A stretch of DNA of 45,594 nucleotides from Nostoc sp. T09 (GTDB lineage Bacteria; Cyanobacteriota; Cyanobacteriia; Cyanobacteriales; Nostocaceae), in assembly GCF_002154695.1 (NCBI RefSeq), contig NZ_MTAV01000006.1, positions 1 through 45,594 of the forward strand, read 5' to 3'. This document shows positions 19,342 to 33,896 of this stretch, piece after piece. The translations under genes and the position numbers were made by a program. The stretch's first letter is position 1, and each line of letters opens with the position of its first letter. The notes under the pieces were generated by a model. That model was not told where the DNA came from. It saw only the letters and a program-made list of their open reading frames with translations, and did not search any database.

Positions 19342-22300
19342 TCAATTTTTACCTACTAAGTCAGTAATGGCTTCAACAAGTCTAACAGGATCGACTGGTT
19401 TGGAAATATGCTTTTGAAAGCCTGCGGTAAGCGCTTGCTGATAGTCAATTTCTCCGGCATAAGCTGTCAGAGCGATCGCGCTAATCTGTCCTCCTTGTTC
19501 TGGCGGCAGAGATCTCACCTGTCGCATTAACATATATCCATCCATTTCTGGCATTCCAATATCGCTCAACAGTATGTCTGGCTGGAACTGAGTAAAAGCG
19601 CTGAGTGCCTCGTTAGCGGAGGCGACTGCTGTGATAGTTGCGCCATGCTGTTCTAGCAAGAAGGCAATAAATTCTCGTGTATCTGTGTCGTCATCCACGA
19701 CTAAAATTTTTACATCCTTTAAATCTCGGGATGGCTGAGATTGTTGGGGATCTTGATGGGTCTGAGATTGATTGTGCATGAGTGGCAATCTCACCGTAAA
19801 GGTTGCACCCCGATCGACGCCTAGACTTTCTGCTTGGACTGTTCCACCATGCAATTCGACTAACTGACGGACGATCGCCAGTCCCAACCCCAACCCCCCA
19901 AATTTACGGGTTGTGGCTGCATCTGCCTGACGAAAGTAGTCAAATACATAGGGGAGGAAATCAGGCTCGATCCCCTTACCTGTATCGCTGACGGTAATTT
20001 GAGCAACAGAGCCAATTTGTTCGAGTCGAATGTCTACCCGCCCCCCTTCTGGCGTAAATTTGACGGCGTTGGAGAGGAGATTCCAGATTACTTGCTGCAA
20101 TCGATTGGCATCACCGGAAACTTGCCTGATATTTGCTGCCAATGTCGTCTGTATTTGAATTGACTTGGCTTCAGCAGCCAGTCGCACCGTGTCCATTGCT
20201 GCTTTAATTGTCGAAACCAAATTCACAGGGCAGACATTGAGGTTAAGTTTACCTCGTAGAATCCGGGAAATATCCAGCAGGTCATCAATGAGATCGGCTT
20301 GTAATTTGGCATTGCGTTCAATCACAGCCAAGGCTTGATTCGTCTTGGCGGCATCCAGTTTTTGGGTTTGTAGTAACTTTGACCAGCCTAAGATGGGGTT
20401 AAGTGGCGATCGCAACTCGTGAGACAGTACTGCTAAAAATTCATCTTTGATACGATTTGCTTGCTGAGATGCTTCGTAGAGCCGAACATTGTCAATTGCT
20501 GAGGCTGCCATCTGAGCCAGTTGTACCAAAATCGCTTCGTCTTCTGCGGTGAATTCGCCCTCATATTTATCAGAAAGCTGAATCAAACCAAGATTTTTAC
20601 CATTACGGCTGGTGAGAGGTACAGCTAGCCAACCACGCATTGGGGGATGTTTAGCTGCGGCCTTACTAAATTTGCACCAATTAGGATGTGCTTCTAGTTC
20701 AGCTTGAGTCAACCGCATCGGCTTTTGTGTGCGGCAAATTAACGTATAAATCCCTGAGCTATCAGGGTTCTCGTTGTAGTTGCGCCACTGGGCATATTTA
20801 TCTGAAAGCGAGACTGTATGAATTCCTTGGGTCCAGTCATCATCAACCGTCATACTGGTGACGGACTGGTGTGCACCAATAATATCGCGGGTTTGGTCTG
20901 TAATTATTCGCAGTCTTTCGTTTAGTGATAGCGTCGAGTTGATACTCAGGGATGCCTCAGTCAACTTTTGTAACCGGGTTGTCTGCTGCTGCTCGCGCAA
21001 GAGTAACCTAGCACGTTCTGCCTCACTGCGTTTCCGTTCAGTGATATCCAGCACGATCGCGATCGTGGACTGGGGTTTGCCTAATGTATCACAGATGGCT
21101 GCTACACTACTGCTCACCCATACTAGGGAACCATCTTTGCGGATGTAACGTTTTTCGATTGTGAAGTCATTTCCTGACGTAGCCAAGCTGTGAAAAAGCT
21201 CTCTTTGCAAAGGCAAATCATCGGGATGAATAATTTCTTCTAGGTGCTTTTGGAATAATTCTGAGTTTGAATAGGCAACTATGTCGCAATACTGCTGGTT
21301 CACCAGGAGGAACCGACCTGTTAAATCTGTTTGCGCAATGCCCACTGCTGCTTGGTTGACGATCGCCCGGAATCGCTCCTCACTGGCACTGAGTGCTTCC
21401 TCTGCTCGTTTGCGTGCCGTAATGTCTCGAAAATAAACGGCAACACCGTCTGGGGATGGGTAAGCGTGGATTTCTAGCCACTTACCCATCGGTTGAACAA
21501 ACTCTTCAAAGACAACGGAAACCTTGTCTTTAACAGCATAGTGAAGTTTCTGGTAGCCCAAACTTCCTACTAATTCGGGAAACACTTCTTGCCATACCTG
21601 CTTACCGAGCAATTCTTCCCGGGATTTTTGCAATAGTCTTGTAGCTTGTTCATTAAAGTAGGTGTAGCGCCACTGGCGATCGAAGGCTACAAAAGCATCG
21701 GTAATACTTTCTAAAATGTTGCTGATTTGACTGCGGGCTGCTTCTGTTTGAATTCGTAAGTCTTGCTCCCGCCGCACTGCTTCTTGACGCATCTGAGCCA
21801 TCTTCAGATTTGCCTCGACCCGAGCCAGCAACTCCCTTGCCGAAAACGGCTTGATTAGATAATCGTCGGCTCCTGCTTCTAGTCCTTCAATACGGGAATC
21901 TTCTCCAGCACGGGCAGAAAGTAGAATAATCGGCATTTGTCTGGTATTAGGGTCAGCCCGTAGCTCCTGTAACAAACCTAAACCATCTAGCCTAGGCATC
22001 ATAATATCAGTCAGTACGAGATCGGGCAGATGCTGACGCACAGCAGTTAAAGCTGCTAACCCATCCGATACCACCTCTACCTCATACCCTTGAGTTAACA
22101 GCAAGCGCTGCACATATTCGCGCATATCAGCGTTATCGTCAGCCAGCAGGATACGGGCAGTGGAAGACGCCGAGACAGGGAGGCTGGGAGACGCAAAGAA
22201 AGTATTAAAAACATTCCCCGTGTCCCCATATGCCTGCGTCCCCGTGTCCTCTTGAGGTAGCCAGCGCAACGCTTCTTCGATGTAGGCAGCTGCATCTATT

Positions 22301-24072
22301 GCAGTTGATGCCAATGGACGAATTGTCTTAATGCGAGCGCTTGGTAAATGAGCCGACCCTGTAGGAATTGATACTTTAAAGCTACTACCTTGGTTGACAA
22401 TACTGGTGACTTTGATAGTACCGCCATGCAGTTGCACTAGTTCTTGAACTAAGGAAAGACCAATTCCCGATCCTTCATAAGTCCGTCCCTTAGCCCCCTG
22501 TACCCGATGAAACCGCTCAAACAAATGGGGTATTTCTTCAGGGGGAATACCTGTACCTGTATCTCGCACCTCCAGTTCAACATCTTTACTGCCATAACGC
22601 AAGGCAACGGTGATATCTCCCGCAAAAGTGAACTTAAAAGCGTTAGAAAGCAAGTTCAGAACAATTTTTTCCCACATTTCCCGGTCTACATACACGGGTT
22701 CAGGTACTGGGGGGCAGTCTACCACAAGGCGCATACCTGCCCGTTCGATGGCGGATCTAAATACTCCTGCCAAGTCTGTTGTCAACATTGCCAAGTCTGT
22801 TGGTTCATAGACCGCTTGGACGCGACCTGCCTCAATCCGGGAAAAGTCCAGCAGTGTATTAACCAGCTTCAGCAACCGCAGGGAGTTACGATGTACAATT
22901 TCCAGTTGTTCGCGATCGCTTGGTAAGGGCCCAGAAGAATCGGCTAGGATATCCTCCAAGGGGCCGAGCATCAAGGTGAGCGGAGTACGGAATTCGTGGC
23001 TGACATTGCTAAAGAAAACAGTTTTTGCTCGATCTAGTTCTGCTAATGCTTCACTGCGCTTGCGCTCTTCTTCGTATGCTTGGGCGTTGGCAATGCTAGC
23101 TCCAATCTGAGATGAAACTAAATCGATAAATCTTTGATAGTTGTCATCAAAGATCCTAAACGGGTTCAAGCCAGCAATCAAGATACCAGCTTTTCCTGTC
23201 TGTCCCGATGGTGCGATCGGTACAGCCACCGCTTGGTGCGGAGGACGCTTCCAAGCGCCTGTTGGCAGGTTGGCAAAAGACGCTTCCAAATTAGAAACCA
23301 GGCATGGCTTCTGGGTTTTGATGATTTCCGCAAAGGGCCAAACTGAATCGGCATCAATATCGACTTTTTGCGGAACTGCTGCATTGTCTGGTTCGATACC
23401 GCAAGTCCCAGTTAACAAAACGCACTGTTGATCTGGATCGACCAGATAAATCATCGCAAAAGGTAGATCGTAAGGGTTAGTTACCAAACAACTCGCACTT
23501 AAAGAGCAGGCTGTATCAAATGTGCGCGCGTCTGCTGTCCTAGCCGCTAATTCCCGCAGTAGTGCCAACTGACGTTCGCTAATAATTCGCTGCGTGTCGT
23601 CTGAGTTGGCACAAATAATGCCACCTGTACCGCCTTGATCGTTAGGAACTGGGCTATATGAAAATGTATAATATGTTTCCTCTGGGTAGCCGTTGCGCTC
23701 CATGATTAATAGCAGCGCTTCATCGTAAGTGCCCTCATTCTGCAACAGCGCTGATTCTGCACGCGGTCCAACCTGATCCCAAATTTCCCGCCACACATAG
23801 GCAGCTGGCTGTCCTAGGGCAGAAGGATGTTTGCCACCAACAATCGCTTTGTAAGCGTCATTGTAAAGGTTAATGAGTTCTGAACCCCACCAGACAAACA
23901 TCGGTTGGCGGGATGTCAACATAATTCGCACGCAAGTCTTGAGGCTCTGCGGCCATGCTGATACTGGACCCAAAGACGTTTGTGACCAATCGAAAGATTG
24001 CATGAGCATTCCCATTTCTCCACCACCAGCAAAAATGTCTTCGATGGTAGTGGCTTTCTTCTCTTGAGTCAC
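19342..24072 (-). CDS. Giant hybrid kinase with two complete histidine kinase modules
   Basis: I prefer the GTG at 24072, because GAGGAG lies 9 nt upstream; a TTG at 24081 sits directly against it. The 1576-residue protein reads, with approximate residues: PAS-like (20-150), GAF (165-335), HisKA-1 (VSHEFRTPLTL, 355-420), HATPase-1 (460-575), receiver-1 (DLVLTDIMMP, 645-765), PAS (785-905), PAS (915-1040), GAF (1055-1215), HisKA-2 (LSHELRSPLNP), HATPase-2, receiver-2 (ILLSDIGMP, to the C terminus). Both kinase modules keep their phospho-accepting histidine and ATP-lid glycines. No membrane helix is seen. It could run an internal phosphorelay. It ends 172 bp from the fni start and no separate regulator is adjacent. 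Confidence 0.92.
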   Translation of the reverse strand: MTQEKKATTIEDIFAGGGEMGMLMQSFDWSQTSLGPVSAWPQSLKTCVRIMLTSRQPMFVWWGSELINLYNDAYKAIVGGKHPSALGQPAAYVWREIWDQVGPRAESALLQNEGTYDEALLLIMERNGYPEETYYTFSYSPVPNDQGGTGGIICANSDDTQRIISERQLALLRELAARTADARTFDTACSLSASCLVTNPYDLPFAMIYLVDPDQQCVLLTGTCGIEPDNAAVPQKVDIDADSVWPFAEIIKTQKPCLVSNLEASFANLPTGAWKRPPHQAVAVPIAPSGQTGKAGILIAGLNPFRIFDDNYQRFIDLVSSQIGASIANAQAYEEERKRSEALAELDRAKTVFFSNVSHEFRTPLTLMLGPLEDILADSSGPLPSDREQLEIVHRNSLRLLKLVNTLLDFSRIEAGRVQAVYEPTDLAMLTTDLAGVFRSAIERAGMRLVVDCPPVPEPVYVDREMWEKIVLNLLSNAFKFTFAGDITVALRYGSKDVELEVRDTGTGIPPEEIPHLFERFHRVQGAKGRTYEGSGIGLSLVQELVQLHGGTIKVTSIVNQGSSFKVSIPTGSAHLPSARIKTIRPLASTAIDAAAYIEEALRWLPQEDTGTQAYGDTGNVFNTFFASPSLPVSASSTARILLADDNADMREYVQRLLLTQGYEVEVVSDGLAALTAVRQHLPDLVLTDIMMPRLDGLGLLQELRADPNTRQMPIILLSARAGEDSRIEGLEAGADDYLIKPFSARELLARVEANLKMAQMRQEAVRREQDLRIQTEAARSQISNILESITDAFVAFDRQWRYTYFNEQATRLLQKSREELLGKQVWQEVFPELVGSLGYQKLHYAVKDKVSVVFEEFVQPMGKWLEIHAYPSPDGVAVYFRDITARKRAEEALSASEERFRAIVNQAAVGIAQTDLTGRFLLVNQQYCDIVAYSNSELFQKHLEEIIHPDDLPLQRELFHSLATSGNDFTIEKRYIRKDGSLVWVSSSVAAICDTLGKPQSTIAIVLDITERKRSEAERARLLLREQQQTTRLQKLTEASLSINSTLSLNERLRIITDQTRDIIGAHQSVTSMTVDDDWTQGIHTVSLSDKYAQWRNYNENPDSSGIYTLICRTQKPMRLTQAELEAHPNWCKFSKAAAKHPPMRGWLAVPLTSRNGKNLGLIQLSDKYEGEFTAEDEAILVQLAQMAASAIDNVRLYEASQQANRIKDEFLAVLSHELRSPLNPILGWSKLLQTQKLDAAKTNQALAVIERNAKLQADLIDDLLDISRILRGKLNLNVCPVNLVSTIKAAMDTVRLAAEAKSIQIQTTLAANIRQVSGDANRLQQVIWNLLSNAVKFTPEGGRVDIRLEQIGSVAQITVSDTGKGIEPDFLPYVFDYFRQADAATTRKFGGLGLGLAIVRQLVELHGGTVQAESLGVDRGATFTVRLPLMHNQSQTHQDPQQSQPSRDLKDVKILVVDDDTDTREFIAFLLEQHGATITAVASANEALSAFTQFQPDILLSDIGMPEMDGYMLMRQVRSLPPEQGGQISAIALTAYAGEIDYQQALTAGFQKHISKPVDPVRLVEAITDLVGKN

Positions 24073-24539
24073 AAGTCTCAACTCCTCATGCTCGAAAATA
24101 TTTATTTTGCAGATCCTGAGTGCGATCGCTCATTGGTATAGTAACCCTTAAATTTGCTCCAATGTTCAGAATAAAAGTTTTATTAGTCAGGTTTTCCAGC
24201 GTTTCTCTGGAATGAAACCGCTAGCTTAACTGCGAACTTTACTTGTGACAGTTCGAGGCGCTATGAGGTCTGGCGAAATAACTCCGCGAATCTCGCTGTT
24301 TGATTGGGGAGATAAAGCGCGGCTAACTTTGCTTTTATAGGCCAGACTTTACCACGTGCTATATTGCTCGTTGTATCTGCCAGAAGATACATAAATTTAC
24401 AAAAAATCCCCTAAAGTTTGGGGTATAGCATCAAATATATGTAGGGGCACAGCATCAGTAAGTTGAGTTACTTAACCCAGACATTATGGATGCCCTGCCC
24501 TTATCAGAAATTATATTGTCTACTTCTTGATTCCTGCCT
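24073..24539. other. Intergenic region, no gene seen
   Basis: This holds one HIP1 site (24122) and a spaced inverted word (GGTCTGGC near 24268, GCCAGACT near 24340). It includes the upstream region of the giant kinase gene. Confidence 0.5.
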
Positions 24540-24830
24540 TTATCTTCTGCCAAACAGCCTAGCAAAGCCTGAAAAGAAGCTCATAACATCGCTAACCGAT
24601 TCAAAGCCCAAACCAATCACTTGAAACGCAGCAGAAGATATAGAAGAAGATCTAAAAATAGAATTGCTGCCAAAACCCCTTCGCCTTGAACTTGTTCGCA
24701 CAGATGACAACATATCTCTCTGCTCAAACATCGACCCTGATAAGAAAATATCAATTCCACCCGAAACTTTGTCGAGTTCTTCGTTTGATAATTCAACGGG
24801 AGCGTTATTTATATCTTTCTCATTAGACAT
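24540..24830 (-). CDS. Double-glycine-leader peptide (orphan bacteriocin/RiPP-type precursor)
   Basis: This encodes 96 residues with AAGGA 7 nt before the ATG. The N-terminal 25 residues form a typical double-glycine leader: acidic and helical, with ELSNEELDKVSGG (13-25) ending at the GG cleavage site recognised by peptidase-containing (C39) ABC exporters. The predicted released part of about 71 residues is rich in serine and arginine (SSVRTSSRRR, RSSSISS), has no cysteine, and ends in an amphipathic basic segment (FFSGFARLFGRR). No cysteine argues against lanthipeptide or sactipeptide rings. No exporter, maturase or immunity gene lies nearby, so any processing enzymes are elsewhere. It may instead be an exported signalling or structural peptide. 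Confidence 0.7.
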   Translation of the reverse strand: MSNEKDINNAPVELSNEELDKVSGGIDIFLSGSMFEQRDMLSSVRTSSRRRGFGSNSIFRSSSISSAAFQVIGLGFESVSDVMSFFSGFARLFGRR

Positions 24831-25210
24831 GATTTTTTCCTTATCAATAGCTATTGATACTTAGATATCTCTCTTGGGCGAGAACTTATGCCGTATTGCC
24901 TTACATCATGAAAAAAATTATCAGGATAAAGGCTGGGGAAAGCTTTGCAGTTACTTTCAGTAAATTGCAAAGTTTTCCTGACCAAGAACTAATACCAAAA
25001 ATTTGTAACTTGAGATACAACTTACCGCTTAACTACCTTAACTATTAGGTTAAAATATATTAGATTTACTTATAGTAAAGCGATAATTATTTCTTGGTAT
25101 TAACGAGATCAAATATAGATACAATCACCTGGTTGAGATTTCCGTTTAACAGCTTTGGCAAAACTTTGCGATTTACTAAAATATACTAATAAAACTTTAA
25201 AAGTGGCTTT
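24831..25210. other. Divergent intergenic region, nothing else recognised
   Basis: The region lies between the leader-peptide gene (minus) and the Uma2 gene (plus) and must hold both promoters. A 64-codon frame at 24854-25048 has no supporting feature. Confidence 0.45.
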
Positions 25211-25930
25211 ATGACCACCACTATTCCTAACTCTCCTAAATCGGAAATTATTTACCCCAGCAGCGATGGAGAACCTGTGGCGGAAACTTACGACCATCTA
25301 TATGCAATTTTAACTACACTAGAAGTTCTCAGACAGTATCTTCAAGGTCGTCGCGCCACAGTTTTAGCCAATCAATTCTTGTATTATGCACAAAGTTTCC
25401 CAAAATTGCGAGTTGCACCTGATGTCATGGTTATCTATGACGTTGAACCAGGGGGACGCGATAACTACAAAATTTGGGAAGAACAACAAGTGCCAAAAGT
25501 GATTTTTGAAATCACCTCTAAAGGGACTCAGGAAGAGGACAAAAACACTAAGAAAAATCTTTATGAAGGACTAGAAGTACAGGAGTATTGGTTATTTGAC
25601 CCGAAGGGAGAATGGATTGAACAGAAGTTGCAAGGGTATCGGCTGCGAGGAGATATTTATGAGCCAATTACCGATAGTTGCAGCCAACAACTACAATTAC
25701 GTCTTGCTGTAGAAGGAAAACTAATTGGCTTTTATCGCTTAGATAACGGAGAAAAATTGTTAGTGGCGGATGAGTTGGTTGAAGCACTCAGACAAGAGAC
25801 TCACAAACGTATAGAGGCTGAAAGACAGGCAGAACAGGAACGTCAACGTGCAGAACAAGAACGTCAACGCGCCACGGAACTCGAGTCGCTACTTTCTCGT
25901 TATCGAGAACAGTTTGGCGAATTGCCATAA
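25211..25930 (+). CDS. Uma2/DUF820-family PD-(D/E)XK protein
   Basis: This 239-residue protein belongs to the large cyanobacterial Uma2 (DUF820) family of nuclease-fold proteins. Seen are the conserved opening segment, APDVMVIYDVEPGGRD (the D of the fold), KVIFEITSKGTQ (the E-x-[ST/K] part) and the late element YEGLEVQEYWLFDP. The last 45 residues form a charged coiled coil built on ERQRAEQERQRA repeats. Most family members have no proven activity and are present in dozens of copies per genome. It converges with the ferrochelatase-like gene across a shared hairpin terminator. Confidence 0.88.
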   Translation: MTTTIPNSPKSEIIYPSSDGEPVAETYDHLYAILTTLEVLRQYLQGRRATVLANQFLYYAQSFPKLRVAPDVMVIYDVEPGGRDNYKIWEEQQVPKVIFEITSKGTQEEDKNTKKNLYEGLEVQEYWLFDPKGEWIEQKLQGYRLRGDIYEPITDSCSQQLQLRLAVEGKLIGFYRLDNGEKLLVADELVEALRQETHKRIEAERQAEQERQRAEQERQRATELESLLSRYREQFGELP

Positions 25931-26010: not shown

Positions 26011-27129
26011 TTAATGATGATGATGGTGATGGTGATGCCCATCTAGTTGGGGGTTAACCGTGATTGCTTCTTCTGACCTCAACTCACTAATATGAGACTC
26101 TGCCCATTGTGCTACCATTGCCAAAAATTCTGGATGGTCATTAACGCAAGGCATTTGTACATAATCCACATCAGGATGCTTTTTCTCTACAGCATGGATA
26201 ATGTGGTGTACATCCAATAGAGTTTCGTGATTTTCTGTAGCAAAACCAATTGGCATAAAAATTACTACTTTGGCACCCAATTGAATCAGGTTATTAGCAG
26301 CTTGCTCAGCGTTAGGTAGAGTCCATTCAATTAGGGGTGTGTCATGGTTGAGCCAACCTACCGAAATTAAAGGATAGCGGTTAATCAACTTTTCCCGTAC
26401 CAATTCATATAATGCTTGACTTTCGGCAATCCCTGAGGTGAATCCTTTCGCTTTGTGAGGACAACCATGATTCATCAGGATAATGCCGATTTGAGAAGGT
26501 AGGTAAGTTGCTGCTAAGTCAGCATTAATTTTCTCCTCTACTATATGAGCCATCAAATCAATGTAGGCTGGCTCGTTGTAGAAAGAAGGAATGTAACGCA
26601 TTCCTTTTACCCAATGTTCATCACCCTCAGCCAACTCGGCTAAAGCATTATTCACCTGCTCGATCGCAATCCCACTAGTAAAGATAGAATCAACCACTAG
26701 TAGGGGATAGATTAAGATTTTGTCGAAGCCTTGGTTTTTAATCTCTGCCAAAACTTGTTTAGGTAAAAAAGGCGCGCAGAAGTTAAAAGCCTTGAAAACT
26801 TGAACGCCCTCACCCCACTTTTCTTGTAAAAGCTTCTCAATCCCAGCGCGTTGCTTTTCAAAGATGGCGTTATGTGGGGAAATAAAATCGTGGTGTGTGT
26901 GTCCCCACTCATGACGGTCAAATAACGCCAAAAGCTTGGCTAGCGGCGGGTAAATCCAAGTTGGGACTGGGGCAAATTTTGCTGTCAGTAGATTTAAAGC
27001 CTGTTCGTTATAGTTAGCGAAATCTTCGTAGCTTTCGACTTCGCCGTAGCCCATGAGCAATACGGCTACTCGGTCTTGACGTGATGATTGCTCGTGGGTG
27101 TGTTGTACTTTTTCCGGCGTGGCTACCAC
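26011..27129 (-). CDS. Ferrochelatase-family protein with natural C-terminal His8 tail
   Basis: The GTG start has GAGG 8 nt upstream. The 372-residue protein follows the ferrochelatase fold: the N-terminal VAVLLMGYGEVESYEDF element, the IYPLLVVDSIFTSG strand, IGIILMNHGCPHKAKG at the position of the catalytic histidine, and VVIFMPIGFATENHETL with the conserved glutamate. Family members insert Fe2+ into protoporphyrin IX, or metal into related tetrapyrroles. It lacks the chlorophyll-binding (CAB) tail of the main cyanobacterial HemH and differs at the usual GGP loop, so it may be a second chelatase or act on another metal or ring. It ends in GHHHHHHHH, which could buffer Ni, Co or Zn. Confidence 0.75.
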   Translation of the reverse strand: MVATPEKVQHTHEQSSRQDRVAVLLMGYGEVESYEDFANYNEQALNLLTAKFAPVPTWIYPPLAKLLALFDRHEWGHTHHDFISPHNAIFEKQRAGIEKLLQEKWGEGVQVFKAFNFCAPFLPKQVLAEIKNQGFDKILIYPLLVVDSIFTSGIAIEQVNNALAELAEGDEHWVKGMRYIPSFYNEPAYIDLMAHIVEEKINADLAATYLPSQIGIILMNHGCPHKAKGFTSGIAESQALYELVREKLINRYPLISVGWLNHDTPLIEWTLPNAEQAANNLIQLGAKVVIFMPIGFATENHETLLDVHHIIHAVEKKHPDVDYVQMPCVNDHPEFLAMVAQWAESHISELRSEEAITVNPQLDGHHHHHHHH

Positions 27130-27404
27130 AGTGAGTTCCTCAATATAACCAGAATGGAGAGATTAAGTATCAAAGAAATAACTGAATTATTCCTCTGCTT
27201 AGTAAACTTATATCCCATCCGGGGGGATAGGATAATTACAATCATCATAACGAGACATGGCATTACATACCCCTACCATTAGGATGTAGACAAAAAAATT
27301 TACTTAACTGTAGATATGTAGATTCAAAGTAGTGTAATCAATAGCACAGAACTGCCTTACGATCACTATAATTGCAGATCACCCTTCCTGGCTGACGGTA
27401 CTTG

Positions 27405-27467
27405 TCTTGAGGCTGAAACAGTATATTGTTACACTTAGCTACTCCATCAGCTTAACAGGCCTCAAGA
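27405..27467 (+). promoter_or_regulatory. Leader inverted repeat 1
   Basis: CTTGAGGC (27406-27413) is perfectly inverted as GCCTCAAG (27459-27466), and the flanking T27405-A27467 extends the pairing to 9 bp around a 45-nt loop. An in-frame ATG begins at 27467, right at its edge. It could be an operator or an RNA structure affecting the helicase start. Confidence 0.4.
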
Positions 27468-27526
27468 TGGGTTGGGATAGCTCTAAGTTATATACAATTT
27501 GCAATAATTGCACATTCTTAACCCAA

Positions 27527-27571
27527 ACACCTCTGAAAGAAGTTGAGTTTTGTTACTTTTTTCAGAGGTGT
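27527..27571 (+). promoter_or_regulatory. Leader hairpin with 16-bp arms upstream of the helicase
   Basis: ACACCTCTGAAAGAAG (27527-27542) pairs with CTTTTTTCAGAGGTGT (27556-27571): 15 Watson-Crick pairs and one G-U, with a 13-nt loop. No T tract follows, so it is not a normal terminator. It is the strongest hairpin noticed in the window. It lies 115 nt before the preferred ATG and may be a repressor operator or a translational control element for the operon. Confidence 0.6.
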
Positions 27572-27685
27572 ACTCATTGCAGAAATAAAATTTTTCGATG
27601 TAACGCTGAGAAGTTTCATTCTCATAGATTAATTATTAGTTGGCTAATCATCTTAGGTTTTAACTTTACTAAGCTCATCAGGTAT

Positions 27686-30600
27686 ATGGAAAAAATCTTA
27701 AAAGAATACTGTAAACAAGCTAATTCTGGACTGCTTCTATTGAGTATGCCGACTGGTTTTGGCAAAACGTACAATGTCCTAAACTTTATTTATTCTAATT
27801 ATCAAGAATTTGCTGCTCAACATAGAAAAATTATTTTTATTACTAACCTCAAGAAGAACCTACCAGTAGATGAACTACAAGAGCGTTTTATTCAAGATGG
27901 TAAAGGACATGAATTCAACAAATATGTTCTTCGCATTGATTCTAACGTTGATACAGTTATTGATAATCTTCTAGAAAATGATAACAAAATACCTGAACAG
28001 TTTAAAACAGAAATTTATAAGCGTTTAAAATCTCGAATAATAACGTGCCAAAATAGGTCACTTCCAAAAGAAGTTCAATTGATGCTAAGAACCGAAATTC
28101 GGAAAGAAATAGAGCCAGCATTCCGAAAAAATATTAAAAAAATCTTGAAAGAAAGTTTTAACAATAAAAAAGCCCGTTTGTTAGCCATACAGAATCAACA
28201 AGACTATCAATGGATTGGCAATTTATATCCCGCAGTATTTACAGATGAAAAAACTGTTTTATTTATGAGTATGGATAAGTTTATTGCTCAAAACACGACA
28301 CTGGTTGAGCAATCATATTACTTCACTGAAAGGTTGATTGATAAATCTCTGATTTTTATTGATGAGTTTGATACTACGAAAGATGCTGTCCTCAACAATA
28401 TTATTCAAACAGGCTTGCGCCATAGAGTAGATCTTCTTGATTTATTCTTGAATATTCATAACCACCTTATGCAAAACGAATTTCCTGAAAGGCTGCTTCA
28501 GGAATCTGGATGGCTCAAGAAAAAATCGTCCAGAAAAGATTGGTTATCTCCACGACAAAAGATTGAATCATTTCGAGATAAAGCTAGTTACATATTTAAA
28601 ACATATCAATTACAACATATCTGTAAATCTCATGATGACTTTTTGACAAAGACAAGAAACTTTCTGTTCTATGACTACCAATTCCATAATGTACTAAATC
28701 GTCATCAGCTTATCAAGATTATTGAAGATATAGAAAACCGTACAAATTGGATTAAGTCTTTTGATATTAAAACAACAGAATCTGGTGTAGACATACAAGA
28801 GTTGCTGAGTAAGATTACCGGATTTCTAACCTATTTTCAGACAGGAATTAAGTATTTAGCTAATAATTATCGACGTTTAAAAGAAGAAAATAAAAGTAAT
28901 CAGGAAGGCTTTCCGCTCGAATCGGCCATTAAAACAGTTCTGAATAATTTTCTCCTTGACGAGCAAGATGTCGCATTTTTGACCAATAAAATTTTAGAAG
29001 ACGATTTGCAGTATGGCTTGCAAGCTGACAAAGGAACAATCCAAAGTCAGATTTTCTATGATACAGGCTTTCGGTATCACGATATCGTCGATAGTGATGA
29101 GCATGATACATTATCGAAGATATATATGTTCAACTTTAGCCGTACACCCGAATCTTTTTTGGCGGGAGTTTGCTCACAGGCTATGGTCGTTGGCATTTCT
29201 GCAACTGCTGGACTTTATACAAACATTGGCAATTACGATCTAGAGTATCTCAAATCCCGTTTAGGAGATTCATTTATAAGTCTTAAAGAAGATGCTCTTA
29301 TTAAGCTCAAAAACGCATATTTTAAAGCAACTCAAGGATACGATCAAGTAGTTATAAAAACCGAATTTATTGGAACAGACTCACAGCAGGAAGCAATCAA
29401 ACAGCTTGAAGAACTTTTGCGTGACCGAGAAGCAGCACAAGCTTTATGGAACGAACTTAGCCATCAAATAACTAATGATGATGATAAGAAGAGTATTGAA
29501 TTTTCATTTTGCCGTTATGTCAGGGCGTTAACTGCATGGAAATATTTTCTAGATCATTCTGATTGTCATGCCTTTCTTTGTCTCTTCAGTAAATTACCAA
29601 AGCCTGCCGATCCGAAGTTCGATCTGGATATATTGTATAAATACGCGAAATACTTATTGGATGACAACAAAGATGTCATTGATGGTAGTGTAGAAGATAC
29701 GATTTTCTTACTTAGTGGAGATAAGTTTGAAGAAAATAAACAGAAACTTCTGAATGATCTGAAAGCTCACAAACGCAGATTCATCATCTCTGCCTACCAA
29801 ACAATCGGAGTTGGACAAAATTTACAATTTCCTATCCCTTGTGAATTAGAGGCAATACACATTAACAACTTGCCAAAGCATTCGGATATGGATATTAATG
29901 GCATTTATCTAGATAGCCCAACAAATCTACTAGTTAATATTTATAGGAATAATATCGAAGATGATGATTTTATAAAATACATTTTTCAATTAGAATTCCT
30001 GCGGGAAAATGGAGCTTTTTCACTTAACACATTTAAGACCAAGTTAGATACAGCATTTCAGAGATACATAGGAAGATATCAGTCTAAGCAAAAGGCTGAA
30101 GACTTCATCAGCTTATATAATACAGGTGCTTATTCACTCTTCTTGAATAAAACAATTATCCAAGCAATAGGTCGAATATGTCGAACTAATATGAAGGCTC
30201 CAAAAATCCATATTATTGCTGATGCTTCAATCCAAAAACATTTAACTGGTTTTGCTTTACCAAAAGATGTAATTCCTGTTCGTGAATATGCTGCTCTTTT
30301 AAAATCAGCAGGTGAATCGATGCGCCCATCTGAAGATTTAAGAGAAGTGCAAAACCGAGCATCTAATAGAAGTAATCAGAATTCTGCCACCATACGCCGC
30401 CAACTGAATAACCCGTGGACACTTAAGAGTATTCAAACATGGCAGGATCTGAGAGAGCAAACTCTTCGTCAACCCGCTATTGAAAAAGAGTCAGAATGCA
30501 ATCCTAACTGGAATAGTATTTACCTGCAATTACCAAAACCTGCCGATTCATATTATTTTTCACATGAAAATGATTATGATGAGATTGAAGTTTTCTTTTC

Positions 30601-31141
30601 TGATGGGTACGGGAAAAAAGAAGTTAAAGAAGTGAGTGAACGAAGTGCCCGTCTTTCCGAGTTAATGAAAATTGATGTACTACATAAATTGTTTATTGAT
30701 TCTGGCTGGGCAACAGCATTTCCTAAATCTAAACTTATGCTAACACCCCCGATGTTCAACAATATTTATAAAGGGGCGTTAGGTGAAGTATGCGGAAAAC
30801 ATATTTTTCAAAACTTCTTAAATATTCATTTGCTAGAACTGGATGTGAATGAATTTGAGTGTTTTGACTTTAAAACAGAACAGAAAGTTTATATAGACTT
30901 CAAGTTATGGAACGATCAAGTTGCAGTTGCATCTGAGGAATTACTTGATAAAATCATGGAAAAAATGGCGTTTGTCGGAGCAGAAAGGGTTTTTGTCATC
31001 AACATTCTTGGTACTTCAAACACACCTTTTCGCCCGATTTCGTCATTTGGCGGGAAAATTGTCGAAGTTCCTTATCTCTGTAAAAATGGTAAAATCGATA
31101 ATTCAGCAATTAATTTTATTCAGGATGAATTTTGTAAATGA
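27686..31141 (+). CDS. ddmD: DdmD-like SF2 helicase with C-terminal PD-(D/E)XK nuclease
   Basis: From the ATG at 27686 the protein has 1151 residues. Walker A is PTGFGKT (22-28), Walker B DEFD (226-229), the SAT motif 505-507 and motif VI QAIGRICR (826-833). The wide spacing points to large insertions between helicase motifs. The C-terminal 120 residues carry a nuclease-like pattern: E1034 in GALGEV, D1061, and D1071-x-K1073 in YIDFK. DdmD of Vibrio cholerae is a similar-sized helicase-nuclease that degrades plasmid DNA after recruitment by DdmE. The next gene overlaps by 4 nt. The region is AT-rich with no HIP1 site seen, suggesting transfer. Alternative starts are the ATG at 27467 and the TTG at 27407, which would add a cysteine-rich N terminus. 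Confidence 0.75.
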   Translation: MEKILKEYCKQANSGLLLLSMPTGFGKTYNVLNFIYSNYQEFAAQHRKIIFITNLKKNLPVDELQERFIQDGKGHEFNKYVLRIDSNVDTVIDNLLENDNKIPEQFKTEIYKRLKSRIITCQNRSLPKEVQLMLRTEIRKEIEPAFRKNIKKILKESFNNKKARLLAIQNQQDYQWIGNLYPAVFTDEKTVLFMSMDKFIAQNTTLVEQSYYFTERLIDKSLIFIDEFDTTKDAVLNNIIQTGLRHRVDLLDLFLNIHNHLMQNEFPERLLQESGWLKKKSSRKDWLSPRQKIESFRDKASYIFKTYQLQHICKSHDDFLTKTRNFLFYDYQFHNVLNRHQLIKIIEDIENRTNWIKSFDIKTTESGVDIQELLSKITGFLTYFQTGIKYLANNYRRLKEENKSNQEGFPLESAIKTVLNNFLLDEQDVAFLTNKILEDDLQYGLQADKGTIQSQIFYDTGFRYHDIVDSDEHDTLSKIYMFNFSRTPESFLAGVCSQAMVVGISATAGLYTNIGNYDLEYLKSRLGDSFISLKEDALIKLKNAYFKATQGYDQVVIKTEFIGTDSQQEAIKQLEELLRDREAAQALWNELSHQITNDDDKKSIEFSFCRYVRALTAWKYFLDHSDCHAFLCLFSKLPKPADPKFDLDILYKYAKYLLDDNKDVIDGSVEDTIFLLSGDKFEENKQKLLNDLKAHKRRFIISAYQTIGVGQNLQFPIPCELEAIHINNLPKHSDMDINGIYLDSPTNLLVNIYRNNIEDDDFIKYIFQLEFLRENGAFSLNTFKTKLDTAFQRYIGRYQSKQKAEDFISLYNTGAYSLFLNKTIIQAIGRICRTNMKAPKIHIIADASIQKHLTGFALPKDVIPVREYAALLKSAGESMRPSEDLREVQNRASNRSNQNSATIRRQLNNPWTLKSIQTWQDLREQTLRQPAIEKESECNPNWNSIYLQLPKPADSYYFSHENDYDEIEVFFSDGYGKKEVKEVSERSARLSELMKIDVLHKLFIDSGWATAFPKSKLMLTPPMFNNIYKGALGEVCGKHIFQNFLNIHLLELDVNEFECFDFKTEQKVYIDFKLWNDQVAVASEELLDKIMEKMAFVGAERVFVINILGTSNTPFRPISSFGGKIVEVPYLCKNGKIDNSAINFIQDEFCK

Positions 31142-33246
31142 GCATTATCACAAACAGACTAAAGATAGATTTTCATATTGATACTATTGAACGAGACTTT
31201 GTTTTTATTCGCTTAAAACGAGAAAAAAATGGTAAATGGTGGGGGGCGGAAGAACTAGACTGCATTATTGGTGACGATTATAAAGCTATGGCAGTTGGGT
31301 ATGCTCAATATGCCTATGCTATGTTTGAAAAAAAATCAAATAATACTTATGAATTACTTCAAAAACTGAGAACCGATCCTAAATTTGCTAGTGTATCTGC
31401 AATTGAAGTAAAGCCCCACGCTGTTTATAACGGAAATGATGAGTGCATATGTGAGGTAACACTTGCCCGATTATTAATGAATTCTCTAGGTTCATCACGC
31501 TCAAGATTTAAGGATTTACATTTCTCAAATCTCACCGGTACATTACTGAAAGTGCCAGCATTAACAGATAAGCTTTATGATCCAATTGGTGTAGCTGAAA
31601 TAACTCTTAGTCGTGTCGATAGTAAAAAAAACGAATTCTTACTGAATGTTAGTGTAGCTAGTTATCGCAAAAAAGTTTCTATCTTAAAAGAATACAAAGG
31701 TGCAGAATTAAAAAAGATTCTTAAAAGACCTGAATATATCTTCCATAGTGGTACAGCATCTCTTAGAAGGTGGCTTCCTTCTGACGGGAAAGAGACAGAT
31801 GCTACTAAGTCTTATATAAAATGCAGTATCCAAGGAAAAAGGCGTCATACTAATTTTATTGAATTTGGAAGTATTAAAGACTTTGAAAACAGCCGAGTCG
31901 GCATTTTGCATCAAGTTTTCAAAAGTATTCAAGAACATTTATCTGAATATATGAGCGTTGATTTTGCCAATATTGAAATTGACGACAGCGTTGAACTGAC
32001 GAACACCTTGCTTAAAAAGCCACAACAGCTTCATTCAGTACTTGATGGGCAACCAATAAACATAATAGACATAGTTAAGGATGAAGATTCTGCTGAGTTA
32101 GCAAAAAGTTTGAAAGCATCGCTTCTTCCTTACATTACTGATGAAAAGCTAATTACTTTTGGTAAACAAGATAAGAAAGGCGCTCTCAATTTTAGAATTA
32201 TACATGATGCCGACTTTTACGAAAGAATGAGGCAGGATGACGAATATCTTGCTTCTACAGATATATTTCAACGGCAACATCTTACCATTGAATCAGCTAG
32301 AAATGCCTTTGATACTATTGTTAAAACAAGTATTAAAGAACTGCTTATAAAGCGGGATATTAGCATTAAAAAATTAAATCTTTTTGATTGGTCTAAACTT
32401 GAATTGAAAGGAGTTTGGACTTTTGCTGCTTGGGATGAAGAAGCAAGTCATGTTATTTTTATGGAAATTCAGCCAAATGGGAATTTTGAATTTCATAAAA
32501 TTGATGAACAAACTCTATTCAATTGGGAAAAATTTGATAAATATAAAGAATTAATGACCGAGAGTGAGTCTGAAGATAAAATTAAAACCTTGGAAGGTCT
32601 TGTTATTTCTGATACTGGTGATATAAATCAGATATTCCGTACTGATGAAATCACCATTCCCGATCTTTCCAAAATTGAAGCTATTATCAACGAAGTCGAA
32701 ACAAAGCTTCCTGAAGATAAGCGAACTGGAAATGCTTTGGCAGAGCTGCTTCAAGAATTTATGACTGAAGTTTCTACGAAAGATAACGATAAACTTATAT
32801 TATTCGGTGAAGAATTACGCATATTAGGTAACAATGAACTAGATAAAAGCAGTTTCCGAAAACTGATAAATAGCTATTTAGGAAAAAGCTCAAATGTTAC
32901 CGATGCATTACGCAATTATCTTCTGAACAGATATGATATTAGGCTAATTTTTTCAAAGCACAAGGAAAACCTCGAAGATTTATTTAATGCTTCTCTCCAT
33001 ATAAATTATTTTGGCGAAACTGAAAAAGAAGCATATTATTTTGTGGGAGATAGAAATGTAAAAGATTATTCTTTCAAGGATGCTTGCCATCTTCGTAAAA
33101 TCGTTGCAGTGAATGACTCAAAACTGATATTTAGACAACTCCTTAAAACTATGGATGTTGATTTTGTCCGTACAGGGCAAAGTACCGTAGTCCCTTTTCC
33201 ATTTAAGTACATTAGAGAGTATAAGAATTTCGACGTTGCTCTATAA
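31138..33246 (+). CDS. ddmE: Candidate DdmE: divergent Argonaute-like partner of the helicase
   Basis: The ATG overlaps the helicase stop (ATGA), so translation is coupled and equal production is likely. The 702-residue protein has no membrane segment, zinc motif or common enzymatic signature. Size, position after a DdmD-like gene and shared base composition match DdmE, the catalytically inactive, DNA-guided prokaryotic Argonaute-like protein that locates plasmid DNA and loads DdmD. I cannot see a canonical DEDX catalytic tetrad, which fits an inactive PIWI domain, but absence by eye is weak evidence. It ends in the hydrophobic FDVAL; Argonautes often end with a hydrophobic C terminus buried in the MID-PIWI interface. 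The identity is inferred mainly from context. Confidence 0.6.
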   Translation: MSIITNRLKIDFHIDTIERDFVFIRLKREKNGKWWGAEELDCIIGDDYKAMAVGYAQYAYAMFEKKSNNTYELLQKLRTDPKFASVSAIEVKPHAVYNGNDECICEVTLARLLMNSLGSSRSRFKDLHFSNLTGTLLKVPALTDKLYDPIGVAEITLSRVDSKKNEFLLNVSVASYRKKVSILKEYKGAELKKILKRPEYIFHSGTASLRRWLPSDGKETDATKSYIKCSIQGKRRHTNFIEFGSIKDFENSRVGILHQVFKSIQEHLSEYMSVDFANIEIDDSVELTNTLLKKPQQLHSVLDGQPINIIDIVKDEDSAELAKSLKASLLPYITDEKLITFGKQDKKGALNFRIIHDADFYERMRQDDEYLASTDIFQRQHLTIESARNAFDTIVKTSIKELLIKRDISIKKLNLFDWSKLELKGVWTFAAWDEEASHVIFMEIQPNGNFEFHKIDEQTLFNWEKFDKYKELMTESESEDKIKTLEGLVISDTGDINQIFRTDEITIPDLSKIEAIINEVETKLPEDKRTGNALAELLQEFMTEVSTKDNDKLILFGEELRILGNNELDKSSFRKLINSYLGKSSNVTDALRNYLLNRYDIRLIFSKHKENLEDLFNASLHINYFGETEKEAYYFVGDRNVKDYSFKDACHLRKIVAVNDSKLIFRQLLKTMDVDFVRTGQSTVVPFPFKYIREYKNFDVAL

Positions 33247-33323
33247 GTATATAAGTTGTATTTATAACTAGTAGGGACTTAGCAATGCTAACCCCTAGTG
33301 TTGACCCAGAGACTAAAGTATAG

Positions 33324-33896
33324 ATGAACATCATCATTTGCCCTGGAATCCACGATCCAGCGTTAACTGAAAGTTTTATCTCAGAGTGCTTAAATTTAAA
33401 TATTGATAGCCCAAGTGCTAAAGAAGCAGTAAATATACTAGTCTACCCAGAACAGGGTGTACTGACCCTATCGCCATTGCATATTTTACAATTTCTACAC
33501 GATCGCTTGGGTAATGAGTTAGAATCGCCCGTGATCTTCATTAGTTTTAGCGCAGGTGTAGTCGGAGCGATGCTCGCTGCGAATTCGTGGCGACTCTTAG
33601 GAGGTAAAGTCATAGCTTTTATTGCTATAGATGGATGGGGGGTGCCACTATGGGGTGATTTTCCCATTCATCGAATGAGTCATGATTATTTCACCCATTG
33701 GAGTTCATCTTTACTGGGTGGTGGGAAGAATAACTTTTATGCAGAGCCAGCTGTTGAGCATTTATGCATGTGGCGATCGCCTCAAACCGTCCAAGGTTTT
33801 TGGGTAGACCTATCCGAGGAATTTTACCCCAAAAGCGATCGCTTGAGTGCATCTGAATTCTTACGCCTGCTGTTAAAGCGCTATGAAGAAAAATAG
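33324..33896 (+). CDS. Alpha/beta-hydrolase-like protein
   Basis: This 190-residue protein begins with the strand IIICPGIHDP, an oxyanion-type start, and contains SFSAGVVGA in place of the usual G-x-S-x-G nucleophile elbow, with serine at the first glycine position. A conserved tryptophan-rich middle (AIDGWGVPLWG) and a histidine in the HLCMW segment follow. It resembles short alpha/beta-hydrolase-fold proteins conserved in cyanobacteria. Whether it is an active esterase is uncertain because of the changed elbow. A HIP1 site is present, so the composition returns to that of the host after the DdmDE-like genes. Confidence 0.6.
   Translation: MNIIICPGIHDPALTESFISECLNLNIDSPSAKEAVNILVYPEQGVLTLSPLHILQFLHDRLGNELESPVIFISFSAGVVGAMLAANSWRLLGGKVIAFIAIDGWGVPLWGDFPIHRMSHDYFTHWSSSLLGGGKNNFYAEPAVEHLCMWRSPQTVQGFWVDLSEEFYPKSDRLSASEFLRLLLKRYEEK

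What the first reader, a model, noticed from the sequence alone, without database searches (positions are those of the whole stretch)
27686..33246. A DdmDE-like plasmid-elimination system in a cyanobacterium
Two overlapping genes encode a large SF2 helicase with a C-terminal PD-(D/E)XK-like motif (E1034, D1061, D1071-x-K1073) and a 702-residue partner. Helicase motifs are seen directly (PTGFGKT, DEFD, SAT, QAIGRICR). Established knowledge: V. cholerae DdmD (helicase-nuclease) and DdmE (inactive DNA-guided Argonaute-like) are encoded in this order and destroy plasmids. Identity of this pair is inference from order, size and domain plan. Such a system would matter for plasmid maintenance in Nostoc-type strains.
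Basis: partly seen in the sequence, partly recalled or inferred. Interest (0 to 1): 0.9.

Follow-up and report, generated by a model that had tools for sequence, protein, structure and literature searches.

The report
Cyanobacterial DdmDE plasmid-destroying gene pair
This cyanobacterium carries a two-gene system, related to one known from cholera bacteria, that probably uses an Argonaute-like guide protein and a helicase-nuclease to destroy plasmids, and the front third of the guide protein looks like a part that strains exchange.

Summary
Window 27686-33246 (+) holds two genes overlapping by 4 nt. The first (1151 aa) matches PADLOC DdmD (E 1.2e-47) and solved DdmD chains. The second (702 aa) matches DdmE, and its predicted fold finds Lactobacillus and Vibrio DdmE first, then other Argonautes. 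Helicase and nuclease motif residues are invariant in 20 aligned homologues. Plasmid elimination itself is inferred, not shown.

Beyond identity: the pair is an AT-rich cassette between conserved genes, and six of six other genomes of the genus that lack it have those genes adjacent. PADLOC DdmD occurs in 8 of 386 cyanobacterial genomes sampled, and DdmDE also in three archaeal genomes (Methanosarcina and relatives). In Nostoc sp. UHCC 0926 it lies on a 291-kb plasmid. Four of the 23 loci are broken.

Newest observation: DdmE is mosaic. Residues 1-235 exist in two cyanobacterial versions (median 45% identity between them), which do not follow the rest of DdmE or DdmD; Hassallia's copy is a clear recombinant. 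I rate this a new member of a known kind, with the exchangeable N-terminal part as the point worth following.

The parts
27686..31141 (+). ddmD: SF2 helicase with C-terminal PD-(D/E)XK-like nuclease, 1151 aa
   Evidence: PADLOC DdmD 1.2e-47; PDB DdmD 4.8e-56, profile 3.4e-93; motif columns invariant in 20 homologues
31138..33246 (+). ddmE: Argonaute-like partner, 702 aa, overlapping ddmD by ATGA
   Evidence: PADLOC DdmE 3.8e-07; PDB DdmE 2.5e-11, profile 2.6e-24; Foldseek 7.0e-26
31138..31842 (+). DdmE residues 1-235: N-terminal part that exists in two cyanobacterial versions and is exchanged
27308..33254 (.). approximate extent of the AT-rich cassette absent from six genus-mates
   Evidence: left homology to empty sites ends at 27307 in 6 of 6; right homology resumes at 33235 (1), 33255 (4) or 33320 (1); GC 34.0% against 41.7% in the rest of the window
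27527..27571 (.). inverted repeat, 17-nt arms, 11-nt spacer, in the leader; role unknown
   Evidence: one place in the genome at up to 3 mismatches; same letters in NIES-22 (by eye)
26011..27129 (-). ferrochelatase-family neighbour, left flank of the insertion site
   Evidence: Pfam PF00762 2.8e-39
33324..33896 (+). 190-aa conserved protein without a Pfam match, right flank of the insertion site

Best explanation
The locus is a DdmDE system. Inferred from V. cholerae and L. casei DdmDE: DdmE, an Argonaute without target cleavage of its own, loads a short DNA guide, pairs with plasmid DNA and opens it; it then recruits DdmD, otherwise a silent dimer, which loads on the displaced strand, translocates as a helicase and cuts with its C-terminal nuclease, so that plasmids are lost. 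Shown here: the two protein families, intact helicase and nuclease motif residues, an Argonaute-type fold for DdmE, strict co-occurrence and coupling of the two genes, and spread as a small cassette. Not shown: guide type, interaction, cleavage, plasmid loss.
For: Family matches. Foldseek: for DdmE the first six hits are L. casei and V. cholerae DdmE (7.0e-26 to 3.6e-20), then Marinitoga, Aquifex, Pseudooceanicola, Thermus and Rhodobacter Argonautes; for DdmD all 13 hits at E <= 0.001 are from DdmD or DdmDE entries. Motif columns invariant in 20 sequences. DdmE follows DdmD in 22 of 22 loci examined, with no other gene cluster shared by more than 2 of them. In the 21 loci without the large deletion the two genes lie within -11 to +10 nt, 15 with a 4-nt overlap (counted by hand). 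Cassette absent, flanks joined, in 6 of 6 DdmD-negative genus-mates.
Against: No functional evidence. PADLOC's DdmE model matches only 6 of 20 DdmE members at E <= 0.01, so the partner is far from the V. cholerae type. Model quality limits the fold argument: DdmE pLDDT 71, TM-score about 0.38 and rmsd 13-14 A against known DdmE; DdmD pLDDT 59, TM about 0.19. The hosts of intact copies keep several extra replicons: NIES-22 has eight extra contigs of 21-208 kb, and one copy is itself on a plasmid, so the system does not clear all plasmids. The PIWI active site was not settled.
Confidence: 0.9

Rival explanations
1. It belongs to the ApsAB branch (nuclease-helicase plus a different Argonaute-like protein, known from E. 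coli) rather than to DdmDE.
For: The ApsAB paper states that ApsAB-like systems occur in some cyanobacteria and that ApsA and DdmD form one wide family (PMC11096173, passages).
Against: The second protein matches DdmE by sequence and DdmE first by fold, while that paper found no similarity between ApsB and DdmE. The ApsB motif Y-x3-K...QG...K is not found: no invariant Tyr of alignment A1 has Lys four residues later (by inspection). The nuclease residues lie at 1034-1073 of 1151 aa here, at 1420-1435 in ApsA. ApsA and ApsB sequences themselves were not compared.
Confidence: 0.05
2. It is a DdmDE relative whose main target in cyanobacteria is phage or conjugative DNA rather than resident small plasmids.
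For: Hosts with DdmDE keep extra replicons, so the plasmid repertoire is not emptied; targets in cyanobacteria are untested.
Against: V. cholerae DdmDE and E. coli ApsAB act on plasmids, and ApsAB showed no effect on eight phages (PMC12409362 and PMC11096173, passages). No DdmD was found in phage records or viral contigs, which says nothing about targets.
Confidence: 0.15
3. The copy in the window is decayed or silent.
For: Four of 23 loci are broken (L019, L020, L021, L023), and the closest genome, G006, lacks the cassette.
Against: Both window genes are full length, with all motif residues, and 91% and 88% identical to the intact NIES-22 pair. Expression is not known.
Confidence: 0.08

Closest known systems
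Lactobacillus casei DdmDE (PDB 9ix4, 9iw3, 9ixm)
   Same: Closest solved relatives of both proteins by sequence and by Foldseek; same gene roles
   Different: Only moderate sequence identity (Foldseek 17-20%, on poor to moderate models); the N-terminal ~225 residues of DdmE give no significant profile match. That 9ix4 and 9iw3 are L. casei comes from the Foldseek titles
Vibrio cholerae DdmDE (PDB 8u0u, 8u3k, 9ezy, 9bgk and others)
   Same: DdmD matched along most of its length, Walker and PD-(D/E)XK lysines aligned; DdmE matched in its middle and C-terminal parts
   Different: Different genomic setting: there on VPI-2 beside other defence genes (PMC12409362, passages), here alone between housekeeping genes; DdmE far diverged
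Escherichia coli ApsAB
   Same: Helicase-nuclease plus Argonaute-like protein acting on plasmids; one wide family with DdmD (PMC11096173, passages)
   Different: ApsB has a MID motif not found here, ApsA is larger; its authors found no sequence similarity between ApsB and DdmE

Membership tests
DdmDE | DdmD: SF2 helicase motifs, intact | tested here: met
   G24, G26, K27, T28, D226, E227, S505-T507, Q826, G829, R830, R833 invariant in 20; PADLOC DdmD in 20 of 20
DdmDE | DdmD: C-terminal PD-(D/E)XK nuclease residues | tested here: met
   E1034, D1061, D1071, K1073 invariant and aligned with V. cholerae DdmD D1100-S-K1102; no Pfam nuclease match; activity untested
DdmDE | DdmE: Argonaute fold related to known DdmE | tested here: met
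   Foldseek 7.0e-26 to 3.6e-20 to six DdmE chains, then Argonautes; profile 2.6e-24. Model pLDDT 71, TM about 0.38, so whole-chain geometry is not secured
DdmDE | ddmD directly followed by ddmE | tested here: met
DdmDE | Catalytically inactive PIWI (no DEDX tetrad) | tested here: inconclusive
   No canonical motif recognised by eye among the invariant columns; no residue-level structural superposition was available
DdmDE | DNA guide loading and DdmD recruitment | not testable with these tools
   needs biochemistry or a complex structure
DdmDE | Elimination of plasmids | not testable with these tools
   extra-contig sizes in eight genomes do not discriminate
ApsAB | ApsB MID motif Y-x3-K...QG...K | tested here: not met
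   no invariant Y with K at +4 in 20 sequences (by inspection); motif from PMC11096173
ApsAB | Sequence similarity to ApsA and ApsB | not tested
   sequences not fetched

The most novel reading that the evidence does not exclude
The N-terminal part of DdmE (about residues 1-235) is an exchangeable module. Cyanobacterial DdmE proteins pick up one of at least two versions by recombination, independently of DdmD and of the MID-PIWI part, because that part faces something that varies outside the system, such as plasmid-encoded inhibitors or the way a target is first engaged. DdmE would thus diversify like the specificity parts of restriction enzymes. The exchange is shown by sequence; the reason for it is a guess.
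Probability: 0.3. Interest if true: 0.75.

Novelty: new member of a known kind. Interest (0 to 1): 0.5.

Why it matters
DdmDE has been studied in Vibrio cholerae and Lactobacillus casei. Here is an intact family in plasmid-rich cyanobacteria and in methanogenic archaea, where it could limit which plasmids persist and which vectors can be kept, a practical matter for cyanobacterial genetics. It sits on plasmids too, which suggests competition between plasmids. PADLOC's DdmE model misses 14 of the 20 partner proteins at E <= 0.01, so surveys that ask for both genes may undercount it. The swapped N-terminal part gives a concrete, testable handle on what that part of DdmE does.

Tried and rejected
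Rejected: another defence family for the helicase (only weak Cas3c, 0.0052; ResIII below its cut-off). A conserved third gene: no cluster besides D and E occurs in more than 2 of 22 loci; the upstream UvrD/PD-(D/E)XK gene of two archaeal loci is absent beside the third archaeal locus. Phage or viral carriage: none in 50,697 phage records nor confirmed in viral contigs.

Led nowhere: replicon sizes as a test of plasmid clearance. I looked at four genomes with DdmD (G001, G174, G315, G126) and four without (G002, G007, G075, G132), picked for few contigs; smallest extra contig 21.3 kb with and 13.1 kb without. Too few, contigs not proven to be plasmids. Rooted trees with three distant plasmid-borne pairs had very long outgroup branches and weak deep forks, so no root or direction of transfer is claimed.

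Mended: three AU tests named their groups without L020, which is a close sister of L013, so they were unfair. One search repeats them with L020. Result: on residues 262-702 the ten type-A rows held together are still rejected but less strongly (p 0.0034, not 5e-08); the Hassallia group is rejected on residues 1-235 (p 8.7e-56) and no longer rejected on 262-702 (p 0.096). My note gave 75-90% identity within a type; one search shows 45-90% (median 65) in type A and 46-92% (median 73) in type B.

Rows left out: L021 and L023 (large deletions) from all alignments and trees except L023 once; L020 from DdmD (split gene); L019 from A1. L001-L010, L031, L033, L034, L037, L047, L048 duplicate loci used under other ids. 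The 'group named beforehand' condition of the AU test holds only in part: groups came from the other gene or the other half, on the same strains.
Full report
What is there. The window encodes, on the + strand, a 1151-aa protein at 27686-31141 and a 702-aa protein at 31138-33246 that share ATGA. The start at 27686 is preferred to TTG 27407 because 14 of 18 homologues have Met at that column (by inspection).

Identity. PADLOC gives DdmD 1.2e-47 (160.5 bits) and DdmE 3.8e-07 (26.8 bits) and nothing better. Pfam and NCBIfam give nothing above cut-off for either. Against solved structures by sequence, the first protein finds L. casei DdmD at 4.8e-56 and V. cholerae DdmD at about 4e-45, the second L. 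casei DdmE at 2.5e-11 and V. cholerae DdmE at about 2e-05. Profiles from 20 homologues raise this to 3.4e-93 and about 3e-73 for DdmD, 2.6e-24 and about 2e-09 for DdmE, with no other molecule below E 0.1 and 1 respectively. The DdmE model (pLDDT 71) finds six DdmE chains first, then Argonautes; of 20 hits at E <= 0.001, six are DdmE, eleven are titled Argonaute, two come from one entry titled only 'protein-DNA complex', and one (9.3e-04) is a yeast kinase module. TM-scores are low (about 0.38) and rmsd high (13-14 A), so the fold family is supported but not the detailed geometry. The DdmD model is poor (pLDDT 59); still, all 13 hits at E <= 0.001 come from DdmD or DdmDE entries.

Conservation. 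In 20 DdmD sequences the Walker, DEFD, SAT and motif VI residues and the nuclease residues E1034, D1061, D1071 and K1073 are invariant. In V. cholerae DdmD the aligned lysines are K55 and K1102 (their published mutation is recalled).

Distribution. By PADLOC DdmD, 2 of 8 genomes of the genus, 8 of 386 cyanobacterial genomes including this one and 2 of 392 of the archaeal phylum of Methanosarcina sp. DH2 have it; 0 of 14 control genomes in each. With the window protein, 2 of 111 genomes of the archaeal family match, giving three archaeal genomes in all (G393, G436, G601). The DH2 copy is on a real archaeal contig: a gene beside it has matches in 25 of 111 family genomes, the best at 83% identity outside DH2. 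A scan of genome contigs gave 13 loci. In all I have 23 distinct loci, 20 cyanobacterial and 3 archaeal.

Mobility. In six of six DdmD-negative genomes of the genus the ferrochelatase-like gene and the 190-aa gene that flank the cassette are neighbours, 373-515 nt apart (6194 nt in the window). Homology on the left ends at 27307 in all six; on the right it resumes at 33235, 33255 (four) or 33320. The sites also hold unrelated filler sequence, so this is not a clean insertion with target repeats. The closest genome, G006 (98% identical flanking proteins), lacks the cassette while the more distant NIES-22 has it at the same place, so it was lost in G006's line or passed between strains by recombination in the flanks. 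GC of the cassette is below that of its flanks in 19 of 19 loci tabulated (four broken loci not tabulated). In Nostoc sp. UHCC 0926 both genes are on plasmid pn2, 291,576 bp, each called hypothetical protein; another copy is on a 30.7-kb contig with a relaxase gene. Distant DdmD-like genes, each followed by a gene of 606-761 aa, are on plasmids of Cetobacterium, Lactobacillus intestinalis and Persicobacter, the last directly after parA and parB; their partners were not tested as DdmE.

Mosaic DdmE. Residues 1-235 fall into two cyanobacterial versions. Version A: window, NIES-22 and eight others; version B: eight others, including Hassallia (L019) and the plasmid copy. Identity between them is 34-54% (median 45) over residues 1-235, 40-75% (median 54) over 262-702; within a version the medians are 65 and 73 against 57 and 61. 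Archaeal copies are about equally far from both (medians 47 and 51). Hassallia is the clear case: DdmD 76-78% and DdmE 262-702 72% identical to the window, but DdmE 1-235 only 54% identical to the window and 77% to a version-B protein; DNA identity drops from about 83% to 55% and returns to 80-84%. The window itself shows a milder sign: against Limnofasciculus 82.5% over 1-235 but 61.0% over 262-702 and 68-70% in DdmD, whereas NIES-22 shows no such step. Formal tests: DdmD data reject version A as a clade (AU p 0.0015) and whole-DdmE data reject the DdmD grouping of Hassallia (p 6e-28); DdmE 262-702 rejects all ten version-A rows as a clade (p 0.0034), 1-235 rejects Hassallia with the window group (p 8.7e-56), 262-702 does not (p 0.096) (replacing unfair tests). 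My own version of the PHI test on 11 loci gave 0 of 200 permutations at or below the observed value for DdmE (0.319 against 0.386 +/- 0.0036) and for DdmD (0.349 against 0.363 +/- 0.0030), so DdmD recombines too, less strongly.

How it probably works. By the published mechanism (review PMC12409362, passages): DdmE with a DNA guide finds plasmid DNA and recruits DdmD, which leaves its dimer, runs along one strand and cuts. The window proteins have the parts for this. Guide use, recruitment and cleavage are inferred. The leader repeat at 27527-27571 might bind a regulator; that is a guess.

What is known. Full-text searches found one paper with DdmD, DdmE and cyanobacteria and two with DdmDE, defense systems and cyanobacteria; the relevant one, PMC11096173, reports ApsAB-like systems in cyanobacteria (passages). 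For DdmDE and archaea 16 papers were counted and 15 listed; I looked into passages of three of the listed ones (PMC12409362 and PMC12259885; PMC12205087 was only listed) - that is, two opened - and 13 were not opened. A 2026 survey of archaeal immunity has no word beginning Ddm in its main text (PMC12988326). The structural papers and the discovery paper were not held. So I claim no more than that I did not find archaeal or cyanobacterial DdmDE described in what I could read.

Verdict. The finding is right and the system is a new member of a known kind. Interest 0.5: host range, plasmid-borne copies and the exchanged DdmE part are worth following.

Noticed in passing
L021:8700-8900 and L023:7100-7260: Two decayed copies (Nostoc MAGs JL34, JL33) have lost different lengths of ddmD but both rejoin ddmE near residue 233-238, the same place as the edge of the exchanged part. 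Hot spot, shared history or assembly fault not settled.
   Followed up: partly
L035:4083-7148 and L036:6271-9579: In two of three archaeal loci a UvrD-like helicase with a PD-(D/E)XK nuclease domain is encoded directly upstream of ddmD on the same strand.
   Followed up: partly
L032 (NZ_CP117770.1), 20001-25564: DdmDE carried by a 291-kb Nostoc plasmid, a plasmid-borne anti-plasmid system.
   Followed up: partly
L058:2337-8341: Persicobacter plasmid pPP11 has a DdmD-like gene and a 761-aa partner directly downstream of parA and parB.
   Followed up: no
window:27527-27571: Inverted repeat with 17-nt arms in the ddmD leader, conserved in NIES-22, single in the genome, no T-run after it.
   Followed up: partly
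window:24540-24830 (-): Small protein with a GG-like leader end and a weak, below cut-off lantibiotic-type match; a copy 94% identical is in G006.
   Followed up: no
L019:9121-11238, L020:1424-4874: Broken copies: Hassallia ddmE interrupted after residue 588, Nostoc S4 MAG ddmD split near residue 711.
   Followed up: partly
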